Under the pieces are notes generated by a model that was not told the origin of the DNA, did not search any database, and was given only the letters and a program-made list of their open reading frames with translations. The position numbers and the translations under genes are program-made. Source: Primula veris (taxonomy: Eukaryota; Streptophyta; Magnoliopsida; Ericales; Primulaceae). From it: a stretch of DNA of 64,000 bases. Shown one piece after another: positions 36,324-47,928 of this stretch; the first letter of the stretch is position 1, and each line of letters begins with the position of its first letter. The stretch is taken from assembly GCA_963682055.1 (NCBI GenBank), contig OY821747.1, forward strand, positions 27,898,126 through 27,962,125, read 5' to 3'.

Positions 36324-39300
36324 ATGGATCCCAATGCTAGCGGCGGAGCAACGGCGGCGGCGATCGATGAGGCGGAGGTGGGGCCGATGGACTGTTTAAT
36401 GGAGGCGGCGACGGCGATGATCGGAGCGGCGGGGGAAGGGAGGAAGAAGAGAGGGAGGCCAGGTAGGGCGGTGACGGTGAGGAAGGTTACGGTGGCGACG
36501 GAGGAGGAGGGAGAAGATGTTTGTTTTCTGTGTTTCGACGGTGGGAGCTTGGTGTTATGTGATCGGAGGTATGTATAGGTTTAGTTATGTATGTGTGTAT
36601 TATGTATTTCAATTTGTAGTATAAAATTGAAATTATTAGTATTAGAGAATTCTTAGATTATGTATGTATGTATGTATTTCAGTATGTAGTGGAAAATTGG
36701 AACTATTATTATTAGTTAGAATTTTAGATTATGTATGTATGCATGTATGTATGCAAATTTGGAGCTATTTTTATTTGATAAGTTTTGATTATGTATGTTT
36801 GTACGTATAGGTTGAGGGATATATGTATGTTTGTATGTATTTCAGTATTTAGTGTAAAATTGGAACTGTTATTATTAGACAATTTTAGATTATGTATGTG
36901 TGTATGTATGTAGTGGACAATTGGAATTATTTTTATTCGACAGATTTAGATTACGTATGTATGTATTTCAGTATGTAGTGGAGAATTGGAACTATTTTTA
37001 TTTGACAATTTTAGATTAGGTATGTATGTATAGGGTGAGGGATATATGTATGTATGTATGTATGTATAGGTTGATGTATGTATGTATGTATAGGTTGAGG
37101 GATATATGTATCTGTGTATATGTATATATTTTCGACAATTGGAGCTAATTTTATTGGACAATTTTAGAATCTGTATATATAGGTTGAGGGATATGTGTAT
37201 CTGTGTATATCAGTATGTAGTGGACAATTGGAACTATTTTTATTCGACAATTTTTAGATTATGTATGTATGTTTGTATGTATGTATTTCAGTGTCTAGTG
37301 GACAATTGGAAATATTTGATAAGACAGTTTTAGATTATGTTTATGCGGACGCGTGTTTATGTGTGTGTGTATGTGTGTATGTATTTACGTATGTCTTAGT
37401 TGACAGGAAGGGAAACAAAGCAAAAGCAAGAGACAAAACACGAGAAAATATCGAAAGATTCTATTATTAACACGTGGAAAAATGTGAAAACACGAAACAG
37501 GACACGTGGTTTTTGAAAGGGGAATTGAAACTGTTTTTAATTAAGACAATTTTAGATTGTGTATTTCAGTATGTAGTGGACAGTTGGAACTATTTTCATT
37601 ATTTATGTGTTTACAGTCTTTCTTCTTCCCTGTTATTGAAGGTGATCATTTTAGATTTTTGTTAGTTGTTCTCTGTATGGATGGGAGGGACGAGGAACTA
37701 GGTGTAGGCTGAAAGGGCATAAATTATAAAAAAATATTTTTTTTTTTCATGAATATCATGCCGATTATAGCATTTAGCCCTCGCATTTAGAAAATATTGA
37801 ATTCCCCCTCCCCCTATGTTTCATGGATATCATGCCGATTATGGGATTTAGCCCTCGCATTATCGGAAAAAACGTTCCACCTCAACTTTAGAGATTGGAA
37901 ATGAGTATTTGAGGGTTTATTTATTCACTTGTTGTATGTAGGTACTTTTGCAGTGTTTTTATTTATTATTAATGATTTTCTGTTCTGTGATCGGATGTGA
38001 GAATTCTAGATTATGTTCGTGTATATAGTAATTATACTTGTTGGTATGTATATGCAAGTGTCTGTGTATCAGTCTATATCGGTCGATTGGCAATAACTAT
38101 TTTTATTTAATTTCTTGTTTTCTAATGAAATTTAGGGGATGCCCTAAGGCGTATCATCCGGCTTGTGTGAAACGGGATGAGGCATTTTTCCAGTCAAAGG
38201 CGAAATGGAATTGTGGTATGTTATGGACATGTTCTAATATTAGTATTTTCCGTCGCTTCTATGTTGAATTTAAATTAATGGTCTTTGTATAGTCTGGAAA
38301 AAATTTTAGAAGTCAAAGAACTGAGAGAAGTCAATATATATGATTATTTTTAGGAAATACAAGTACTATATTGGGACATTCTAAATTAAGGTAAGGGAGG
38401 GATTAATGATATTTAATCGCATGGGAGTAGGCATAGATGCTTCATATAAAGTTATAATTGATTGGGAGATGAGGAAAATGCACTAGGGTTGTATTGGTAT
38501 TGGTAGAAATGACGTTACAGCAAAATAGATTTTTTCATTGAATGAGGTAGTCAAAATGAGTCATGTACCCATGGCATATGCCTAAGTAACTAACTACTTA
38601 CCTTAAAGAAAGACGGTCGTTTATATCACACCATGTGCGAACTGGAGTATAGTCTATGAGAGATTTTGAAACCTAACATTAATTGAAGGCTAGATGTTTT
38701 CTTAAATAACAGTCTGTTTCCTGCGGCAATTAGATTTAATATAGGTATATGTAATAAATATGGAGCATGGTCATTACGGAATCAAAATACGACGTACATC
38801 ATAATGCCTTCTTATTTAGTAAGCGTTTGTCGTAGTCCCTTATAGAGGCTGTTGACAAGAAGGCTGGAAAATGATACATAAAAGATTCAGTTTGGTGGCT
38901 GTCATGTCCGTCAACTATCTCTTTTTCTACTAGTTCCAAAATGCATCAGCTCCACCCTCTTTTAAAACAATTGTTGCTTTTGTTTCTGTTACCTCCACAT
39001 TCTTTCTTTAGCTTCATGTATGTTTATACTACTTTTAGCAAGCATCTACAATATGTTCTCTGGCTCTTTCTATGTGTTGCACCCGAGCAATCTTTAACTA
39101 TTGACCTGTTGTGAGGCTTTTAATATGGTTTTATGCATCACAGGTTGGCATATTTGTAGTATATGTCAGAAGGCTGCGCACCATATGTGCTATACGTGTA
39201 CGTATTCATTGTGCAAGACATGTACTAAAGATTCAGAATACTTATCTGTACGAGGGAACAAAGGATTTTGTGCACCTTGTATGCGAACTGTTATGTTGAT

Positions 39301-42300
39301 CGAGGACATTGCTCCAGGAATTAAAGAAACGGTATGCACAATTTACTTTGTTTTGAGACGTTAAAACAGGATACTAAATTAGTAAAATTCCCTCGTTTAA
39401 TGATAAACTTCTGTAAGCTAAATGCTCTCCTTAGTTGTAGTGTTAATTTAGTCAAAATTGTCCTTGGTCTTTATTGAAAGTCTAATTGACCTAAGAAATC
39501 TAGTGAATGGGCCATATCCTAATATTAGGAAAGATTGTAAAAGCTTGTGAGATTAATATAGTAACCTCTTCTCAAGGATTTCTATAATTAAGAACTCAAT
39601 TATAGCTTCTCATGTAGATTTGCGTATAAAATAGAAATAGTGAAAAGTTATTCTTTAGTTGATTTAGGCTTAAAGCATAACGTCACCCTTTGTGGTCATA
39701 ATACTTCTGCTATTTTTAATTACCGTACAACGTTTTTCAATAGCCTTTTTGGCATATTGCCCATTTAAATTTTATCTAATAAAGTTTAGTTCTGGAAGCT
39801 ATAATAGCACATTTGAGAAAAACAACGGAAGCCATAAAATCTTGAGTTGATCTATTAGGTAAGTGCAGTTAACATATTCCCTTACATATCCTTGGAATAA
39901 TTGTTTATGCAAGACATTCGAGATGTATTAATGGAATGGTTTCTTGCTTGATGTAGTTTTTAATATTGTTTAATCCAAGCATCTTATATGAATTTCCTTG
40001 ATGGTAGTCCTAGTGTTCACCCTATGTGTCCTTCCCCAATCTCTAAGCTCCTATGAAATTTTACAAGCCATCTCTTGTACTGGGTCTCAAGCTCTTTGTC
40101 ACGCCACTAATAGTTCCAACGGCAGCGAATTTTAGTTACTGAAATTTGGTTATCATTGTTAGTTAGGGCTGTAGGTTGTTAAATCTTGTCCGACTTCACA
40201 TTCAAAATAAGCCTATCATGGTTGAATCTATGTCCTTGGCTTAGCGAATTGAACATGATTGGGTAGGAGAACCCACCTTTTCAGGCTTTCATAGTTTTCT
40301 AAATTCTGATTTGGTCCGAGTTTCCGTGTTCACTAAGTTGGGAGATAAATTAACTTCAAATGCCTGTTTTAGCGTATTAGATGTATGTAAATGGCTTGAA
40401 GCTTAGAGTTATTCCCAACTTTGGTTTCAGTCTTTTGGTGTATGGTAGTGCTGGTGATAACTAAAGTTTCTGCTTTTAGTTTTCACAAACTGAAAAATAT
40501 CACACTGTCAGTTACGGGTTTCGATGAATCATGAAGAGTAGCTCCCATCTTTTCTTCTTTTGGAACTGGAGAATAATTTTTCCAGATTGATGTTGATTTA
40601 CTGCTTATTTAATCTCCGTTACTTGCATACCATCTTGTCTTCTACTTCATTTAAAGTTCTTTGACATTGCAACAACTCTTGACATGTAGGTTCAAGTAGA
40701 TTTTGATGACAAGACTAGTTGGGAGTACCTTTTCAAAATGTACTGGATTTACCTGAAGGGGAAACTATCTTTAACTTTAGACGAACTTACTCAAGCTAAA
40801 AAACCATGTAAAGAAGTTGTACCCACTGCTCGTAAAGGCAAACTATCTTTAACTTTAGGCGAACTTACTCAAGCGAAAAAACCATGTAAAGAAGTTGCAC
40901 CCATTGCTCGTAAGGAGCAGCGCCTGGATGTTTTTAATAGCAATAGTGATTGCAAAAGTTCAATTTCAGACGTCCCTTTGGAGTTATCAGATTCGAAAAA
41001 GAGAAAGAAAAAGGAGCAACTTATTTTACCCAGCATAGTTGATTGTCAGAAAACAGACAAGTCCAGTGGAAAAAGCTCAACTTTATCAGGGTCCAAAGAA
41101 TGGGCAACTAAAGAACTCTTGGAATTTGTGGCACATATGAGAAATGGTGACGTATCTATGGTGTTACCATTTGATGTTCAAGGTCTTTTGCTGGAATATA
41201 TAAAGAGAAACAATCTCCGGGACCCTCAGAAGAAAAGTCAAATTATATGTGATGCTAGGCTTACGAATCTTTTCTTAAAACCCCGAGTTGGTCATTTTGA
41301 AATGTTAAAACTTCTCGAGTATCACTTTCTTATAAAGGAAGAGATTCACAAAGAGGATATTTTGGATAACATTCGCGCTCCAAATCATGTAGAGGGTGGT
41401 GGGAACAATGAAAGCTTTTTGAAGACAGAAAACAAAATTAAAAAACGGAAAAAACGGAAAAAAGTTGAAGACAGAGGGCAGCAAACAAATCTTGAGGAAT
41501 TTGCAGCTATTGATGTTCATAACATCAAATTAATTTATTTACGTCGTAGTTTGATGGAAAATTTGGTAACTTCTAGTGGAAATTTTCCTGATAAAGTTCT
41601 TGGCTCGATTGTGCGAATAAGAATCTCCACTGCTGATCTGAAGCAAGATATGTATAGGCTTGTCCAAGTAGTAGGTATACATTTGATTCCTTTTTGTGTT
41701 ACCATCTTAAGTGCTCTTATTGTATAAAATATCCTGCCATCTGTAACATACCTGTACTGTTTGTTTTCAGGTACATTTAAGGCCTCTGTTCCTTATAAAA
41801 TCGGTGGGAAGACCGTGGATGTAATGCTAAAAATATTGAACTTGAATAAGAAAGAGCTTGTAGCAATTGATGCCATCTCTAATCAAGATTTTTCAGAGGT
41901 GATTGTTTAGCACTTCTCTTAATTAGCTCTTGCAGTTACATCATCATCATCAAACTAAGCCTTAAACCCCAAGAAAATGGGGTCGGCTAAAAGAAGCAAT
42001 ACATGTTTTGTTACCAGGAAGTAGATAACCTGAGATAATGAACTTGGTCTTAACATGGACTGTACTGTACTTTTGCAATCTTTATGGTGCCGACTTTATT
42101 TTTTAGATTAAGTATATGCTTTAATAATTCATTCCTTCTTCTTTCACGACCACCTATTATTTATTCCATCTTCTTTCATTCTCATCTCCAGCGGATCTGA
42201 ATATGTAGTTTGTATTTTCTGTTAGATAACATTAGTCATTGGCCTTCTTTGGTTGCAGCTTTTAAGCTTAGATTGTCTGCTTAAAAGCTAGGCAGTATTT

Positions 42301-45300
42301 CGTTGATCAGCATAAAAACTGAGCTTTTTTAGATTTTTGGCCTGAAAAGGCTGGAAGCTTGAACTGGATAAACCTAGCTTCTCTCTGAAGCTCAAAATAT
42401 CCAGCTCACTTGCTTAAGAGCTGTAACCAACAACCCCTCTGTTGATACTCATATCTCCGTTTAATCTTTCTGGATCTTTATCTAAAACTGTGATATTATT
42501 CTTCCAGGATGAATGCAGACGTTTTCGCCAAAGCATTAAATGCGGATTTCTTAAGCGGATGACTGTAGTAAGTTAGGATCTTGATTATTCATATATGCAA
42601 AATATTTGTAAATTACACTCACCTCTAATGGTGTCCATGATTTGGTATAGGGCCAGGTCCAGGAAAAGGCAAGGGCACTTCAGGAAGTTAGGCTCAACGA
42701 TGTATGTTAGTTGAGCTTTAACTAGAATAGAGTATTCATCTCTTGAAAATTTATTTCTTACTAGCTCTTTTTTTTTCTATCTTTTGTCATGCTTATACTT
42801 TATATTCTGATCCAATATTGTAGTGTCTGGAAGCTGAGATATTGCGGCTTAACCATCTCCGGGATCGAGCAAGTGAAAATGGGCGCAAGAAAGAATATCC
42901 TTTTCATCTTTACATTATATTTTAATGATTTACTTTATTATCTGCATATCATTTCCAGCCTCTTATTTATGCCAAATCGGTGACACCTCTCAGAGGTTGT
43001 TTGTAGTTATATAGTAGATATGAAAATATACAAATTCTCCAATCTATCTTTCTGTTTAAGAGTGTTTATATTGTTCAAGGGTCTGGACCCCAAACAGTTA
43101 AAAAGAGGAGTTTTTTATAATAAAAAGGACGTTATGTGGAGATATCTTTGAAAATACTTAAAAGACAATTGTGTTTGACAATGCTAATTAAGTAATATGG
43201 GTTAGTTTCATAAGAATAATGCCAAGCATCTGCTGATTTCCATCAAAGTTTCCCTTGACATAATTACGCTTAGAGAATGTGTAGAGAAGATAGACCTTCT
43301 GAAGACATCCGAGGAACGTCAACGCAGATTAAATAAAGTTCCTCAAGTACACGCAGATCCAAAAATGGATCCAAAGTGCGAGTCTGATGACGATACTGGC
43401 CAAATTCATAAACAGAAACAAGGTCATTTACTTTACTTTTTTTCTTCTTCGATTTCCCTTCAATCTGTTCTTTTTTCTTTTTTCATAATAATCTTTCTGT
43501 CAATGCAGCTGATCAAGTAAAATCGAGAAAATCTGGATTTAAGAAACTTGGAAGGGACCCAATCTCCACACAAAATAAAATTAAACAAGCGAAATTAAAT
43601 TTGGAAAAAGGACCGTCAAGCAGATTGGGAAAGAACGTCCCTGAGTTGCAGAAAAAGAAAGATGCAAATGTATCAAAATCTCCAACAGTCTATATCTCTA
43701 ACGGTAGCCCACCATCAGCATCTAATAGTGAGATAGAGAAAATATGGCATTATAGAGATCCCACTGGAAATATACAAGGACCATTTTGTATAATACAATT
43801 GCGAAAGTGGAGCACAAGTGGGTATTTTCCACCTGATATGATGGTATGGAATATTAACAGTGAAGAAGTTGAATCTCTACACTTGGCTGATGTGTTAAGT
43901 GGAAACTTTCATAAAGCTTTACCATTACGATCAAACACAGCCTTACCTATATGTGAAGATAGGCATAGCAGCACTGTTAATCCGACAATAGTAAATGACG
44001 GGAAATTAAATAATGGATCTTGGAACTGTAGTAGTGCTACTTCTAACGGAAATATTAGTTCAAATGGGAACACTATATGTGTAAATGCAGTGCATGAGAA
44101 CCAAACCGATAGTCATCATTTTTCTGCCCAGTCGTCTGTTGAAAGTTGGAGACCTTCAGCTGTAAATACTGCACCTGTTAAAAAAAAGGGGCTGGAGGAG
44201 TTACCAAGCCCTACTCCAAAGGCTAGTGGGAGAGAAGAGAAAGCTAGCTTGGATATACAAAATTCTCCAATTCTGTCGCGAATGATGATAGATACTGATG
44301 AAAAGGTTGATTCAAGCATTGGAAATTCACCAAGTTTGTTACTAAATGCGAAAGATAGGGACGAGAAAGTTCCAGCCACTGAGAGCACGCCACCTGCAAC
44401 TGCACAGAATCGTCATAGTTCTTCACCAAAGAGGGTTGATGACGATGTAAAAGGTATTTTGGGGAATCCAAATGTGCCAAGTCCTTCACCAAATCCAAGA
44501 GATAGAGATGAAAAGGCTGATACTGTTATTCAGAATCTACCAAGTCCCTCGCAGAAATCGGTTGATGATGATGTAAAAACGCATCTGCCAATTCAGAATA
44601 TGCCAAGTTCCTCGCTGGAACCAATAGATGATGATGTAAAGGGTGATTTGGGAATTCCAAATGTCCCAAGTCTCTCACCAAGTCCAATGGGTAGAGATGA
44701 AAATGCTAATATGCTTATTAAGAATCATCAAAGTCCCTCGAGAAAATCTGTTAATGATGATGTCAAAATGGATCTGCCCATTCAGAATATACCAAGTTCC
44801 TCACTGAAACCCATAGATAGCGACATGGAAGTTCTGGCCAATGAGAGCAAGCCACCTGGCATTAACTTGGCCTTAAGCTCAGCAACGCTGGAAGACAGAG
44901 ATGAGAAAGCTGGTACTAGTATTCAGAGTCTTTCAAGTCCCTCACCGAAGATTATTGACGAGGGTGGAAATGTTGGTCCGACCGCTCAGAAATTGCCTAG
45001 TTCCTCACAGGATACAAGAGATGATAATGAAAACGTTCAAACCAAAAATAGCACGCCACCTAGCCCTGACTTGAACTCTAATCCCAGCCCACCAATGCCG
45101 AGCAATGTAGATGAGAAAGCTTGTATTAGTATTAAGAAAAGTCTCTCGCCTAAGATGGTTGACAAGGAGAGAGAGATTGGTTCCACTGTTCAGAATTTAA
45201 CGAGTTTACCGGAAGAGAACGATAACCTTGGTTCTAATAAGAACACGCCAAGTAGCACTAGTTTGACCTGCAGCCCCCTCCCACCAGACCCAAATTACAG

Positions 45301-46372
45301 AGATGAGAAAGCTGTGATAGATATTCAGAATCTTTCTAGTGCCTCGCCAAATACGGCTAATGATGATGGTGAAGCTGATCCCGGTCAGAGATTACCAAAC
45401 AACCTGTCATATCCAGAAGATGGGAACGAGAAAGCTCAGTCCATCAAGAGCACGCCACCTGTCCCTGACGTAGCAGAGGTTAGTAGTAAGAGAGATGAGA
45501 AAGCTGTGATAGATATTCAGAATCTTCCTACTACCTTGCCAGAGATGGTTAATGGTGATGGGGAACCTGATCCGACGGAACAAAAGTTACCAAAAAGCCC
45601 TTCATATCCACAAGATAGGAACGAGTCCGACATAATATCCCTTTCCAGCATAGTAGAGGTTAGTAAGAGAGATGAGAAAGCTAATATAGATATTCAGAAT
45701 CTTCTAAGTCCCTCGTTTAAGATGGTCCATGAAAATGAAAAAGTTGATTTGTCGCCAAATACAAGCGATAGGTGTAAAAAAGTGGAACCGAAAGAGAAAA
45801 TGCCTTGTGAAAAAACACCTGATTTGTGCAATAGTGAAGCTGCTACCAGCTGTGACCAATTTGCATCTCCTCCTACTTCCAATCATTTTTTCAGTCCATC
45901 TAATGGGATGGCATTTGATTACGAGCCTATCGAGTTTATGACTCTGGGTGACGATTTGGTCTCAGATCTATTAGCTGAAGTTGATGCAATGGAGACTCAT
46001 GGTGACGTTGCGATGTACCCGGATGATGATTTCTTTGATTTTGTGAAAAACGATGATGTAAGTGAGCCACATGGTCCCACTGAGTTTGATATTTTCGATC
46101 ACAGCAAAAAGTCTAATGGGGAAGCCTCGACAAGCAATATAGAAAGAGTAGATACCTGGCATAAGCGTGACTCAGGCAACCGAACAGAAATTGGTCCGAA
46201 TAATCAAATAGTTTCGAATAATTTGGAGGGTAATACTTGTTCGGGTTTTGGAGGGTTAACTGAAGGAATGGCTTACATGGGTTGGGGATCTAACCCGGGT
46301 TTAACACAGGTAAATATGGATATTAATGAAAACACATCGTTTGGATTTATGGGTCATGAGAGACGGCGATGA
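36324..46372 (+). CDS. NERD / CCCH-44-like chromatin protein (AT-hook, PHD, SWIB, Plus-3, GYF)
   Basis: My exon model is 36,324-36,568; 38,136-38,215; 39,144-39,331; 40,690-41,674; 41,771-41,898; 42,508-42,567; 42,651-42,701; 42,824-42,894; 43,268-43,422; 43,509-46,372. The sum is 4,827 nt, giving 1,608 residues, and the frame is kept at every junction. Domains: an AT-hook-like KKRGRPGR (about residues 41-48); a PHD finger starting VCFLC (67-70) and running through GCPKAYHPAC and the HICSIC region to about 140; SWIB about 305-390; Plus-3 about 443-580; GYF about 733-775 (IWHYRDPTGNIQGPF). A low-complexity linker (about 890-1,405) of DRDEKA/IQNLPSPS repeats follows. The Arabidopsis relatives, NERD (CCCH-19) and CCCH-44, are PHD-GYF proteins; NERD acts in AGO2-linked RNA-directed silencing. 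The expected C-terminal CCCH finger lies behind the TGA at 46,370. Eight of the nine introns are GT-AG; intron 8 is AT-AC. The ATG is the first in frame after the 5'UTR-like region. Confidence 0.9.
36569..38135 (+). repeat. Intron 1 with TATG microsatellite and ~110-bp degenerate minisatellite
   Basis: From about 36,570 to 37,600 the phrase 'atttcagtatgtagtggaca' plus 'attggaactatttttatt' and 'gacaattttagattatg' recurs about eight times with (TATG)n runs between. Each unit carries TTTCAG, a look-alike of a 3' splice site. The small ORFs here are repeat artefacts. Confidence 0.85.
40759..40915 (+). repeat. 78-bp in-frame tandem duplication in exon 4
   Basis: GKLSLTL(D/G)ELTQAKKPCK is coded twice in a row, 26 codons apart, with only a few substitutions. 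It lies between the PHD and SWIB regions. Confidence 0.9.
41945..42010. repeat. Dispersed plant repeat with GGGGTCGGCTA in intron 5
   Basis: AAGCCTTAAACCCC followed by AAATGGGGTCGGCTAAAAGA is a phrase widespread in plant introns. I do not assign its class. Confidence 0.45.
42241..42437. mobile_element. Fold-back MITE-like repeat in intron 5
   Basis: The left end GGCCTTCTTTGGTTGCAGCT and right end AGCTGTAACCAACAACCCC are imperfect inverted repeats of the GG(G)...TTTGGTT type common in Tourist-like elements. The inner part is rich in AAGCTT/AGCTT. Target duplication is not clear. Confidence 0.5.
42895..43267 (+). other. U12-type AT-AC intron (intron 8 of the NERD-like gene)
   Basis: The donor is exactly ATATCCTTTT at 42,895. 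The branch-site-like TTTCCCTTGAC ends at 43,259, and the acceptor is ATAATTAC ending at 43,267. Splicing here joins ...RKK-E-LRECVEK in frame, matching the conserved Plus-3/helical region of the family. No GT-AG alternative restores that frame. Confidence 0.88.
44221..45760 (+). repeat. Degenerate coding repeat in exon 10
   Basis: About a dozen units of the form DRDEKA...IQNLPSPSPK(x)VDDDVK, each roughly 20-45 codons. They make an acidic, Ser/Pro-rich, probably disordered linker. Confidence 0.8.
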
Positions 46373-46486
46373 AAAGATGTTGGTAGTGGATATGGAGCGA
46401 AGTCTCAGCTCCCAAAAGCAACTGTGTTTGTAAATTGTTATGAGTATTGCAAGGAGGGTGAAACTTGCAATTGTTTGCACCCATAA
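46373..46486 (+). pseudogene. Remnant of a CCCH zinc finger beyond the stop codon
   Basis: Reading on in the same frame past the TGA gives 37 more codons ending EYCKEGETCNCLHP and TAA (46,484-46,486). The C-x5-C-x3-H part of a CCCH finger is intact. The first Cys spacing is short (C-x3-C rather than the usual x7-8). Family members end with this finger, so it is either lost or reached only by readthrough. Confidence 0.7.
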
Positions 46487-47846
46487 TTGCTCATTATATA
46501 TTCAAGGTGTTTAATTCGTACTATCAGATATTAGTGTAAGATCATTCTTTTTCTTGGATAAAAAGCTCCATACGAAATGATGGTGGTGTAATGTAACCCA
46601 GACATTATAAGTAATTAATTGCCTGTGAAAGAAGACACAGTTAAATGTTTGTCATTGCCACTTACTAACATTTGTTAATAGTTTCTGCAAGTGTTCATTA
46701 AATGGCAGTAATGAAATTACCTTGCACAGGACGGCAAACACAGCAATTACGCCCCCTACATGAGGTGGTGGAATCAAGATTCTTTCGTTTTTAAAAATTA
46801 TAAGTAAAATACACGGTTATAAAATTATGTGTTTCATCTTTGTCGGAATGGCAGGATGTTGGAAGGACGGGCGGACTTCCCCAGTTCTTTCACTGCCTTC
46901 ATTTGGCCCTTTTGCTAAGAGTTTCTGAATAAAAGTTATGGTGGTGTTATTCTTAGTTATTGCCCATTGCAAACTATTATAATCACAATTCACATGCAAA
47001 TATACTATATATATATTATTTACTGAGTTACTGCATTACTGTAGTGAAAAAGTCAAGAGGCTGTTTCCAAGGAAAAAAAACTTACGAAAAAAATATCAAC
47101 TAGACCAATCATGTCTTCAACTAAAAAAACCAAATTATTCTGGCTTGTTTTTTTTTTCGTCAATTCCTACAATAACATAAAGAAACTATATTTCCATTCA
47201 TTGAAGTTTAAACAACGAAACTTAGTTGTCGGAGATCATGAAATAACTATTGATAGTAAAAGAATGGCGAACTATTCGAGCGGTTCATTTTTCCTTGAAA
47301 CAGTAGTACATTTACGTTTCCTTTTTTCTGAGTGTGTGAGAAAAGTTGGGCTAATCCTTGAAATTTCTTGTATTTTCAGGCTAAAGAACCTGAAAAACTA
47401 TCCTTTTATGCTCGATAACCGAATAGACTTTAGACTTGAACACAAAGTAAAAAGGCAAAAAACGAAATCCAAATTTTAACAGCTACAACAGAGGGACTTT
47501 TGTTCTTCAGGCTAGTTTGCTAACTGAGTACACATTTTCACCTTTGGATTGGTCTCCCTCAAATTAACAGTGTCAGTACCTTTGAAAAATATTTTATGTC
47601 AGTGTGTAACATGAGGAGGAAAAATTACGTTCATTTGTATGTGTTGCATTGTAATAAAATTATGAGTGATAATATAAGGACAGATGTTTTGACAGAAACT
47701 CTTGCAGATACTTAATATAGATCATTCATTTACCCTCGTATACATGATCTGATGGTCCATATTGAGTTTCTGTGATAGTCTATATCGAAAAGTCTCTCCT
47801 TATATCATCACTCTAAAATTATTATTGTTTCACAATATAACAATAA
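46487..47846. other. Intergenic region / 3'UTR
   Basis: Presumed 3'UTR of the NERD-like gene at the left. An open frame of 122 codons at 47,111-47,479 has no recognisable domain, so I do not call it a gene. Nothing else is seen. Confidence 0.4.
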
Positions 47847-47919
47847 GCCCGTCTAGCTCAGTTGGTAGAGCGCAAGGCTCTTAACCTTGTGGTCGAGGGT
47901 TCGAGCCCCTCGGTGGGCG
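47847..47919 (+). tRNA. tRNA-Lys (CTT)
   Basis: The 7-bp acceptor stem GCCCGTC pairs with GGTGGGC (two G-U pairs). A-box TAGCTCAGTTGG, B-box GGTTCGAGCCC. The anticodon loop CTCTTAA is closed by CAAGG/CCTTG, with anticodon CTT at 47,880-47,882. The discriminator is G. A T-run at about 47,929 can end Pol III transcription. There is no intron. Confidence 0.97.
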
Positions 47920-47928
47920 CTTCTTCTT

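What the first reader, a model, noticed from the sequence alone, without database searches (positions are those of the whole stretch)
42895..43267. U12-type AT-AC intron in a NERD/CCCH-44-like gene
Seen directly: donor ATATCCTTTT, branch-like TTCCCTTGAC with the A nine bases before the end, and acceptor ...TTAC. Only this splice joins RKK-E-LREC in frame. AT-AC introns are a small minority of the already rare minor-spliceosome class, so a chromatin/silencing gene carrying one could depend on minor-spliceosome activity.
Basis: partly seen in the sequence, partly recalled or inferred. Interest (0 to 1): 0.75.

Follow-up and report, generated by a model that had tools for sequence, protein, structure and literature searches.

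The report
Conserved AT-AC minor intron, silencing gene
A plant gene related to known DNA-silencing factors is interrupted by a rare type of intron that the cell's second, minor splicing machine is expected to remove; the intron looks real and old, since it sits at the same place in a sister gene and apparently in many other flowering plants, but it is a further example of a known kind rather than something new.

Summary
Confirmed. 42895-43267 is intron 8 of a ten-exon gene (36324-46372, +) encoding a SWIB/Plus-3/GYF protein with a PHD-like finger. It has a perfect ATATCCTT donor, a U12-type branch site (TCCCTTGAC, A at 43258) and an AC end. The other eight introns are GT-AG. Of the splices tried, only this one and a TA-CG register one base on give the family's protein (RKK-E-LREC).

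One paralogue found in the same genome has an AT-AC intron at the identical place and phase: 1106 nt, ATATCCTTTT...ATCCTTGAC...AC. The first ten bases are identical; the interiors do not align. Of 193 homologous proteins retrieved (one search biased for it), 40 carry at this junction the peptide that a (A/G)TATCC donor would encode, a sign that annotators read into the intron. The 40 fall in both paralogue clades and include a monocot. All 18 transcript-like contigs retrieved, from other plants, are spliced cleanly there.

So this is a U12-type AT-AC intron that predates the duplication into CCCH-44-like (this gene) and CCCH-19/NERD-like genes. Removal by the minor spliceosome is inferred; no RNA from this species was available. 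A regulatory link to silencing is plausible but untested. New member of a known kind.

The parts
36324..36568 (+). exon 1 (start codon; part of the PHD-like finger)
   Evidence: homology and domains
38136..38215 (+). exon 2
39144..39331 (+). exon 3
40690..41674 (+). exon 4 (SWIB and start of Plus-3)
41771..41898 (+). exon 5 (Plus-3)
42508..42567 (+). exon 6
42651..42701 (+). exon 7
42824..42894 (+). exon 8, ends ...AAGAAAGA (phase 2, first two bases of the Glu-603 codon)
42895..43267 (+). intron 8, 373 nt, AT-AC, U12-type
   Evidence: same place in the paralogue
42895..42902 (+). U12-type 5' splice site ATATCCTT
   Evidence: first 10 bases identical in the paralogue
43251..43259 (+). U12-type branch site TCCCTTGAC, branch A at 43258
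   Evidence: paralogue ATCCTTGAC
43266..43267 (+). 3' splice site AC
   Evidence: Thr (ACN) before LREC in 5 of 6 read-through homologue models, Ser in the sixth
43268..43422 (+). exon 9, begins G-CTT-AGA-GAA-TGT (E-LREC)
43509..46372 (+). exon 10 (GYF domain; ends at TGA 46370-46372)

Best explanation
The stretch 42895-43267 is a genuine U12-type AT-AC intron (phase 2) of a CCCH-44/ZMP-like chromatin gene. U11 and then U6atac would read ATATCCTT, U12 would pair with the CCTTGAC branch element, and the minor spliceosome, including its AT-AC-specific factors (DROL1/TXNL4B-CENATAC class), would join ...AAAGA|GCTTAGAG... to encode RKK-E-LREC. Failure to splice would add YPFHLYIIF and a stop after Glu-603, giving a 612-residue protein without the GYF region. 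The intron was present before the CCCH-44-like/CCCH-19(NERD)-like duplication and has been kept since, its interior free to diverge. Shown: the signals, the junction, the paralogous intron, and clean junctions in other plants' transcript-like contigs. Inferred: the snRNA pairing, use in this species, and the effect of retention.
For: Perfect donor, branch site, AC end and junction. Eight of nine introns are GT-AG; only intron 8 is not. Of the 120 homologues listed (of 732 found) by the unbiased search, 114 are ungapped over the junction, and all 6 exceptions begin their insertion with K-(E/G)-Y-P. Over two listings 152 of 186 are ungapped and 34 of 34 exceptions start that way (the second search was built to favour such insertions). 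With the third search 40 of 193 carry it, 14 in the 44-like and 26 in the 19-like clade, including Iris pallida. In 5 of 6 models that run on into an intact LREC the preceding residue is Thr, as expected of AC|G; the sixth has Ser. The paralogue at C6 has ATATCCTTTT...ATCCTTGAC...TTCAC|G at the same codon, 1106 nt. First 10 intron bases identical, interior 10-mers average 2.8 of 10. All 18 short contigs retrieved whose reading frame fills most of the contig are spliced at the junction.
Against: No RNA from this species was available. The branch site departs from TTCCTTRAY at one position, and its A lies nine bases from the end, at the short side of the range I recall for U12 introns. The peptide K-E-Y-P cannot distinguish ATATCC from GTATCC donors, so the AT ends are seen in DNA for two genes only. 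One of six read-through models has Ser, not Thr, before LREC. Whether the genome holds U12 and U6atac snRNA genes could not be tested, as the search tool did not complete (calls in Tried and rejected).
Confidence: 0.95

Rival explanations
1. The junction is really spliced by the major spliceosome at GT-AG or GC-AG sites, giving a slightly different protein; the AT-AC motif is incidental.
For: 29 in-frame, stop-free GT/GC-AG pairs exist between exons 8 and 9 in the ranges tried; the closest in length is 42872|43249, three bases shorter.
Against: None gives the family's sequence; 114 of 120 listed homologues are ungapped with the AT-AC product, 18 of 18 transcript-like contigs agree, and the paralogue keeps the same AT-AC signals.
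Confidence: 0.02
2. It is an AT-AC intron removed by the major (U2-type) spliceosome, as known for animal sodium-channel introns.
For: AT-AC ends alone do not define the spliceosome (PMC2831892, passages).
Against: U2-type AT-AC introns of sodium-channel genes carry G at +5 (same paper); here the donor is ATATCCTT with C at +5 and there is a CCTTGAC branch element, in both paralogues.
Confidence: 0.02
3. The intron is a conserved regulatory switch: slow minor splicing limits the amount of ZMP/NERD-type protein and ties silencing to minor-spliceosome activity. (This adds to the best explanation rather than replacing it.)
For: Donor peptide in both paralogue clades and in names that I place, from recall, in rosids, asterids, Caryophyllales and a monocot; retention gives an early stop.
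Against: Minor introns can persist without selection for regulation; AT-AC introns convert to U2-type less often than GT-AG U12 introns (PMC2831892, passages). No expression data were seen.
Confidence: 0.15

Closest known systems
U12-type AT-AC introns of plants (about 230 U12-intron genes in Arabidopsis, PMC5853960 abstract and passages; 26% AT-AC, PMC7367187 Table 2 passage)
   Same: ATATCCTT donor, CCTTRAC-type branch close to the end, AC terminus, non-zero phase, conserved position between paralogues
   Different: I saw no difference in the anatomy; only the host gene is noted here. I could not check whether NERD or ZMP is already in U12DB, ERISdb or the DROL1 target list, because those tables are not held.
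Conserved U12 intron of plant CBP20 genes (PMC5932401, start of abstract in search listings)
   Same: A U12 intron fixed at one position of a plant nuclear gene across land plants
   Different: Different gene; the subtype of the CBP20 intron was not looked up
ZMP and NERD (PHD/SWIB/Plus-3 proteins of RNA-directed DNA methylation; ZMP: PMC9699677, passages)
   Same: SWIB, Plus-3 and GYF domains, PHD-like finger and sequence family
   Different: This copy ends with a stop before a degenerate CCCH remnant; the rosid ZMP ancestor lost GYF (PMC9699677), this one has it

Membership tests
U12-type (minor) introns, AT-AC subtype | near-invariant 5' splice site ATATCCTT | tested here: met
   8 of 8 bases; consensus from PMC2831892, passage
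U12-type (minor) introns, AT-AC subtype | branch element (TCCTTAAC; TTCCTTRAY, the latter recalled) close to the 3' end | tested here: met
   TCCCTTGAC, one mismatch to TTCCTTRAY, A nine bases before the end; ATCCTTGAC, one mismatch, in the paralogue
U12-type (minor) introns, AT-AC subtype | AC at the 3' end | tested here: met
   paralogue
U12-type (minor) introns, AT-AC subtype | position and class conserved in homologous genes | tested here: met
   DNA in one paralogue; donor peptide in 40 of 193 homologue models, which does not show the first base
U12-type (minor) introns, AT-AC subtype | spliced reads across the junction in this species | not testable with these tools
   no RNA data for this genome; 18 of 18 transcript-like contigs of other plants agree
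U12-type (minor) introns, AT-AC subtype | removal depends on U11/U12/U4atac/U6atac | not testable with these tools
   needs mutants; searches for U12 and U6atac genes in the genome did not complete (and earlier)
ZMP/NERD-like proteins | SWIB, Plus-3 and GYF domains | tested here: met
   residues 1-864 scanned: SWIB 3.1e-13, Plus-3 3.6e-22, GYF 3.9e-13, above Pfam cut-offs
ZMP/NERD-like proteins | PHD finger | tested here: inconclusive
   three PHD-type models match at 2.1e-6 to 1.1e-3, each under its cut-off
ZMP/NERD-like proteins | C-terminal CCCH finger | tested here: not met
   in-frame TGA at 46370, degenerate remnant behind it; 22 of 61 44-like models also lack it in their last 60 residues, some of them truncated
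CCCH-44-like clade rather than CCCH-19/NERD-like | placement on a tree of the SWIB-Plus-3 region | tested here: met
   midpoint-rooted FastTree of 195 rows, dividing branch 99; three proteins named RDR2-independent DNA methylation protein (P0063, P0105, P0160) fall with the paralogue. Some names disagree: P0133, named CCCH 44, lies in the 19-like clade.

The most novel reading that the evidence does not exclude
Both angiosperm paralogues that steer small-RNA silencing (ZMP-like and NERD-like) have kept an AT-AC minor intron through selection, so that minor-spliceosome state, in particular its AT-AC-specific DROL1/CENATAC-class factors, sets the dose of these proteins and thereby the pattern of Pol IV siRNAs and DNA methylation.
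Probability: 0.12. Interest if true: 0.65.

Novelty: new member of a known kind. Interest (0 to 1): 0.4.

Why it matters
It places two related silencing genes among the likely dependants of the minor spliceosome, which makes a concrete prediction (mis-splicing of both in drol1 and u11/u12 mutants, and altered siRNAs) checkable in RNA-seq of known mutants. It also shows that database protein models of this family can be wrong at one spot: 40 of the 193 retrieved carry peptide that looks translated from the intron donor (one of the three searches was biased towards them; 6 of 120 in the unbiased one).

Tried and rejected
GT-AG and GC-AG alternatives were enumerated and rejected. Chance was rejected for the combination, though not for ATATCCTT by itself. 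The loose scan gave three further donor-branch-AC combinations on the + strand, all with the donor at 39886, and none on the - strand; I did not pursue them because that donor lies inside intron 3, away from an exon edge.

Literature: At2g16485 + U12, NERD + 'U12 intron', and At3g51120 + U12 gave 0 papers (gene codes recalled). A wider search over four codes, U12 and minor spliceosome gave 328 papers; the 25 listed held none of the codes. RNA-directed DNA methylation with U12/minor-spliceosome terms gave 179 papers, 8 listed, and with AT-AC 4 papers; I judged these by listing only and read none for that question, though two of those listed (PMC6283158, PMC8685244) hold all four terms. The DROL1 paper (Plant J. 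2022) did not come up in a search for DROL1; I know it from a citing passage in PMC11039992 and recall.

In the paralogue I did not find exon 7 or the start of exon 10, so one end each of introns 6, 7 and 9 was not seen.

Full report
Gene and observation. The window lies at contig C8 of a 436.5-Mb genome. Reading the + strand gives ten exons between 36324 and 46372 that join without an internal stop into 1608 residues. In residues 1-864 Pfam finds SWIB, Plus-3 and GYF domains above cut-off and PHD-type fingers below it. Eight of the nine introns are GT-AG. Intron 8 runs from 42895 to 43267 and is AT-AC. Its donor is ATATCCTTTT, and TCCCTTGAC lies with its A at 43258, nine bases before the end. 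The claimed coordinates are exact.

Is it more than chance? The donor octamer alone is not: four copies in the window against 5.0 expected. At a junction fixed by the protein, the joint chance of donor, AC end and branch site is about 1e-8 by a first-order simulation. Among the donor/acceptor pairs tried between 42860 and 43299, only 42894|43268 (AT-AC) and 42895|43269 (TA-CG) give the exact protein. There are 29 stop-free, in-frame GT/GC-AG alternatives, but they alter it.

What relatives say. A search with residues 455-720 found 732 homologues, of which 120 were listed. Over the 16 residues at the junction 114 of 120 align without a gap. The six others all have an insertion exactly at the Glu codon that begins K-E-Y-P or K-G-Y-P, which is how (GA or GG)|(A/G)TATCC reads when translated. 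At four neighbouring GT-AG junctions gaps within eight residues occur in 3, 0, 0 and 0 of 120 homologues, against 6 of 120 here (the junction after exon 9 was not tested). A second search was deliberately built to favour such insertions (120 of 483 listed); over both listings 34 of 186 are interrupted and all 34 begin that way. A third search with the intron-retention reading gave 8 hits, of which four run into the intron and stop, among them one from the monocot Iris pallida. In all, 40 of 193 proteins carry the donor peptide. Six models read on into an intact LREC; five have Thr just before it, as AC|G predicts, and one has Ser. The likely cause is that gene finders which expect GT-AG miss this intron; that cause is my inference. 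The peptide cannot tell an A from a G as first intron base.

Splicing evidence. Eighteen of the retrieved proteins come from contigs of 3.3 to 6.0 kb in which the open frame takes up most of the contig. I take these to be assembled transcripts; the tool does not explain the source label. All 18 are joined cleanly at this codon (17; P0015). I saw none that could be this species: the best match of any source in the first listing is 71% identical.

Paralogue at DNA level. The search of the own genome scored 11 candidates and found one further place, on contig C6 (such counts are lower bounds). At the same codon and phase it has exon ...AGAAAAGA, then ATATCCTTTTTTAA...GATCCTTGACTAGCATTCAC, then GCTTAGAG: an AT-AC intron of 1106 nt with its branch A eleven bases before the end. 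Read by eye, introns 1-5 there have GT-AG ends; of 6 and 9 I saw only a GT, of 7 only an AG. The two introns 8 share their first ten bases and the CCTTGAC element; no other match between them reaches E below 1. Flanking exon bases agree at 45 of 66 and 77 of 100.

History. A FastTree of 195 rows, midpoint-rooted, splits into a 44-like group (62 rows, with the window gene, 14 carriers of the donor peptide) and a 19-like group (133 rows, with the paralogue, 26 carriers), the branch between them supported at 99. Three proteins named 'RDR2-independent DNA methylation protein' (P0063, P0105, P0160) fall in the second group; database names are not wholly consistent with the split (P0133). So the intron is older than the duplication. 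The root is uncertain, so how much older is not settled. That NERD is CCCH-19 and ZMP is CCCH-44 of Arabidopsis is recalled.

Mechanism. By the established minor-splicing pathway (recalled), U11 and then U6atac read the donor and U12 the branch site; AT-AC introns additionally need CENATAC in humans and DROL1 in Arabidopsis (PMC11039992, passage). C at +5 argues against a U2-type AT-AC intron, which has G there in sodium-channel genes (PMC2831892, passages). Retention would add nine residues and a stop; loss of the message by decay would follow but is inferred. I could not test for snRNA genes.

Known or new. AT-AC makes up 0.06% of plant splice-site pairs (PMC6310983, abstract) but 26% of Arabidopsis U12 introns (PMC7367187, Table 2 passage). 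About 230 Arabidopsis genes have U12 introns, and mutants in U11/U12-31K, U11-48K and U11/U12-65K mis-splice most of them (PMC5853960, abstract and passages). My searches listed no paper that I could recognise as naming this intron (partial lists for 58 and 79), but the gene lists sit in tables that I could not open, so it may well be catalogued. ZMP interacts with Pol IV and directs or bars it at particular loci (PMC9699677, abstract and passages). The link from minor splicing to silencing is therefore a good test, not a result.

Verdict. The novelty is modest: a well-conserved member of a known kind in an interesting gene pair.

Noticed in passing
46370-46490: The gene's frame stops at an in-frame TGA (46370-46372), and the same frame behind it reads a degenerate CCCH finger (...FVNCYEYCKEGETCNCLHP, then a stop): this copy seems to have lost its C-terminal zinc finger. 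39 of 61 44-like homologues still end with one.
   Followed up: partly
193 homologous proteins (P0001-P0193), at the residue matching Glu-603: 40 of 193 database models contain peptide that looks translated from the intron donor (K-E/G-Y-P...), so public annotations of this family can be wrong at this junction.
   Followed up: yes
47847-47920: A tRNA-Lys (CTT) gene lies about 1.5 kb downstream of the gene's stop codon.
   Followed up: no
44181-45760: Exon 10 encodes what looks like a degenerate repeat array (...DEKA..IQNLPSPSP... units) between the GYF domain and the C terminus; seen by eye only.
   Followed up: no
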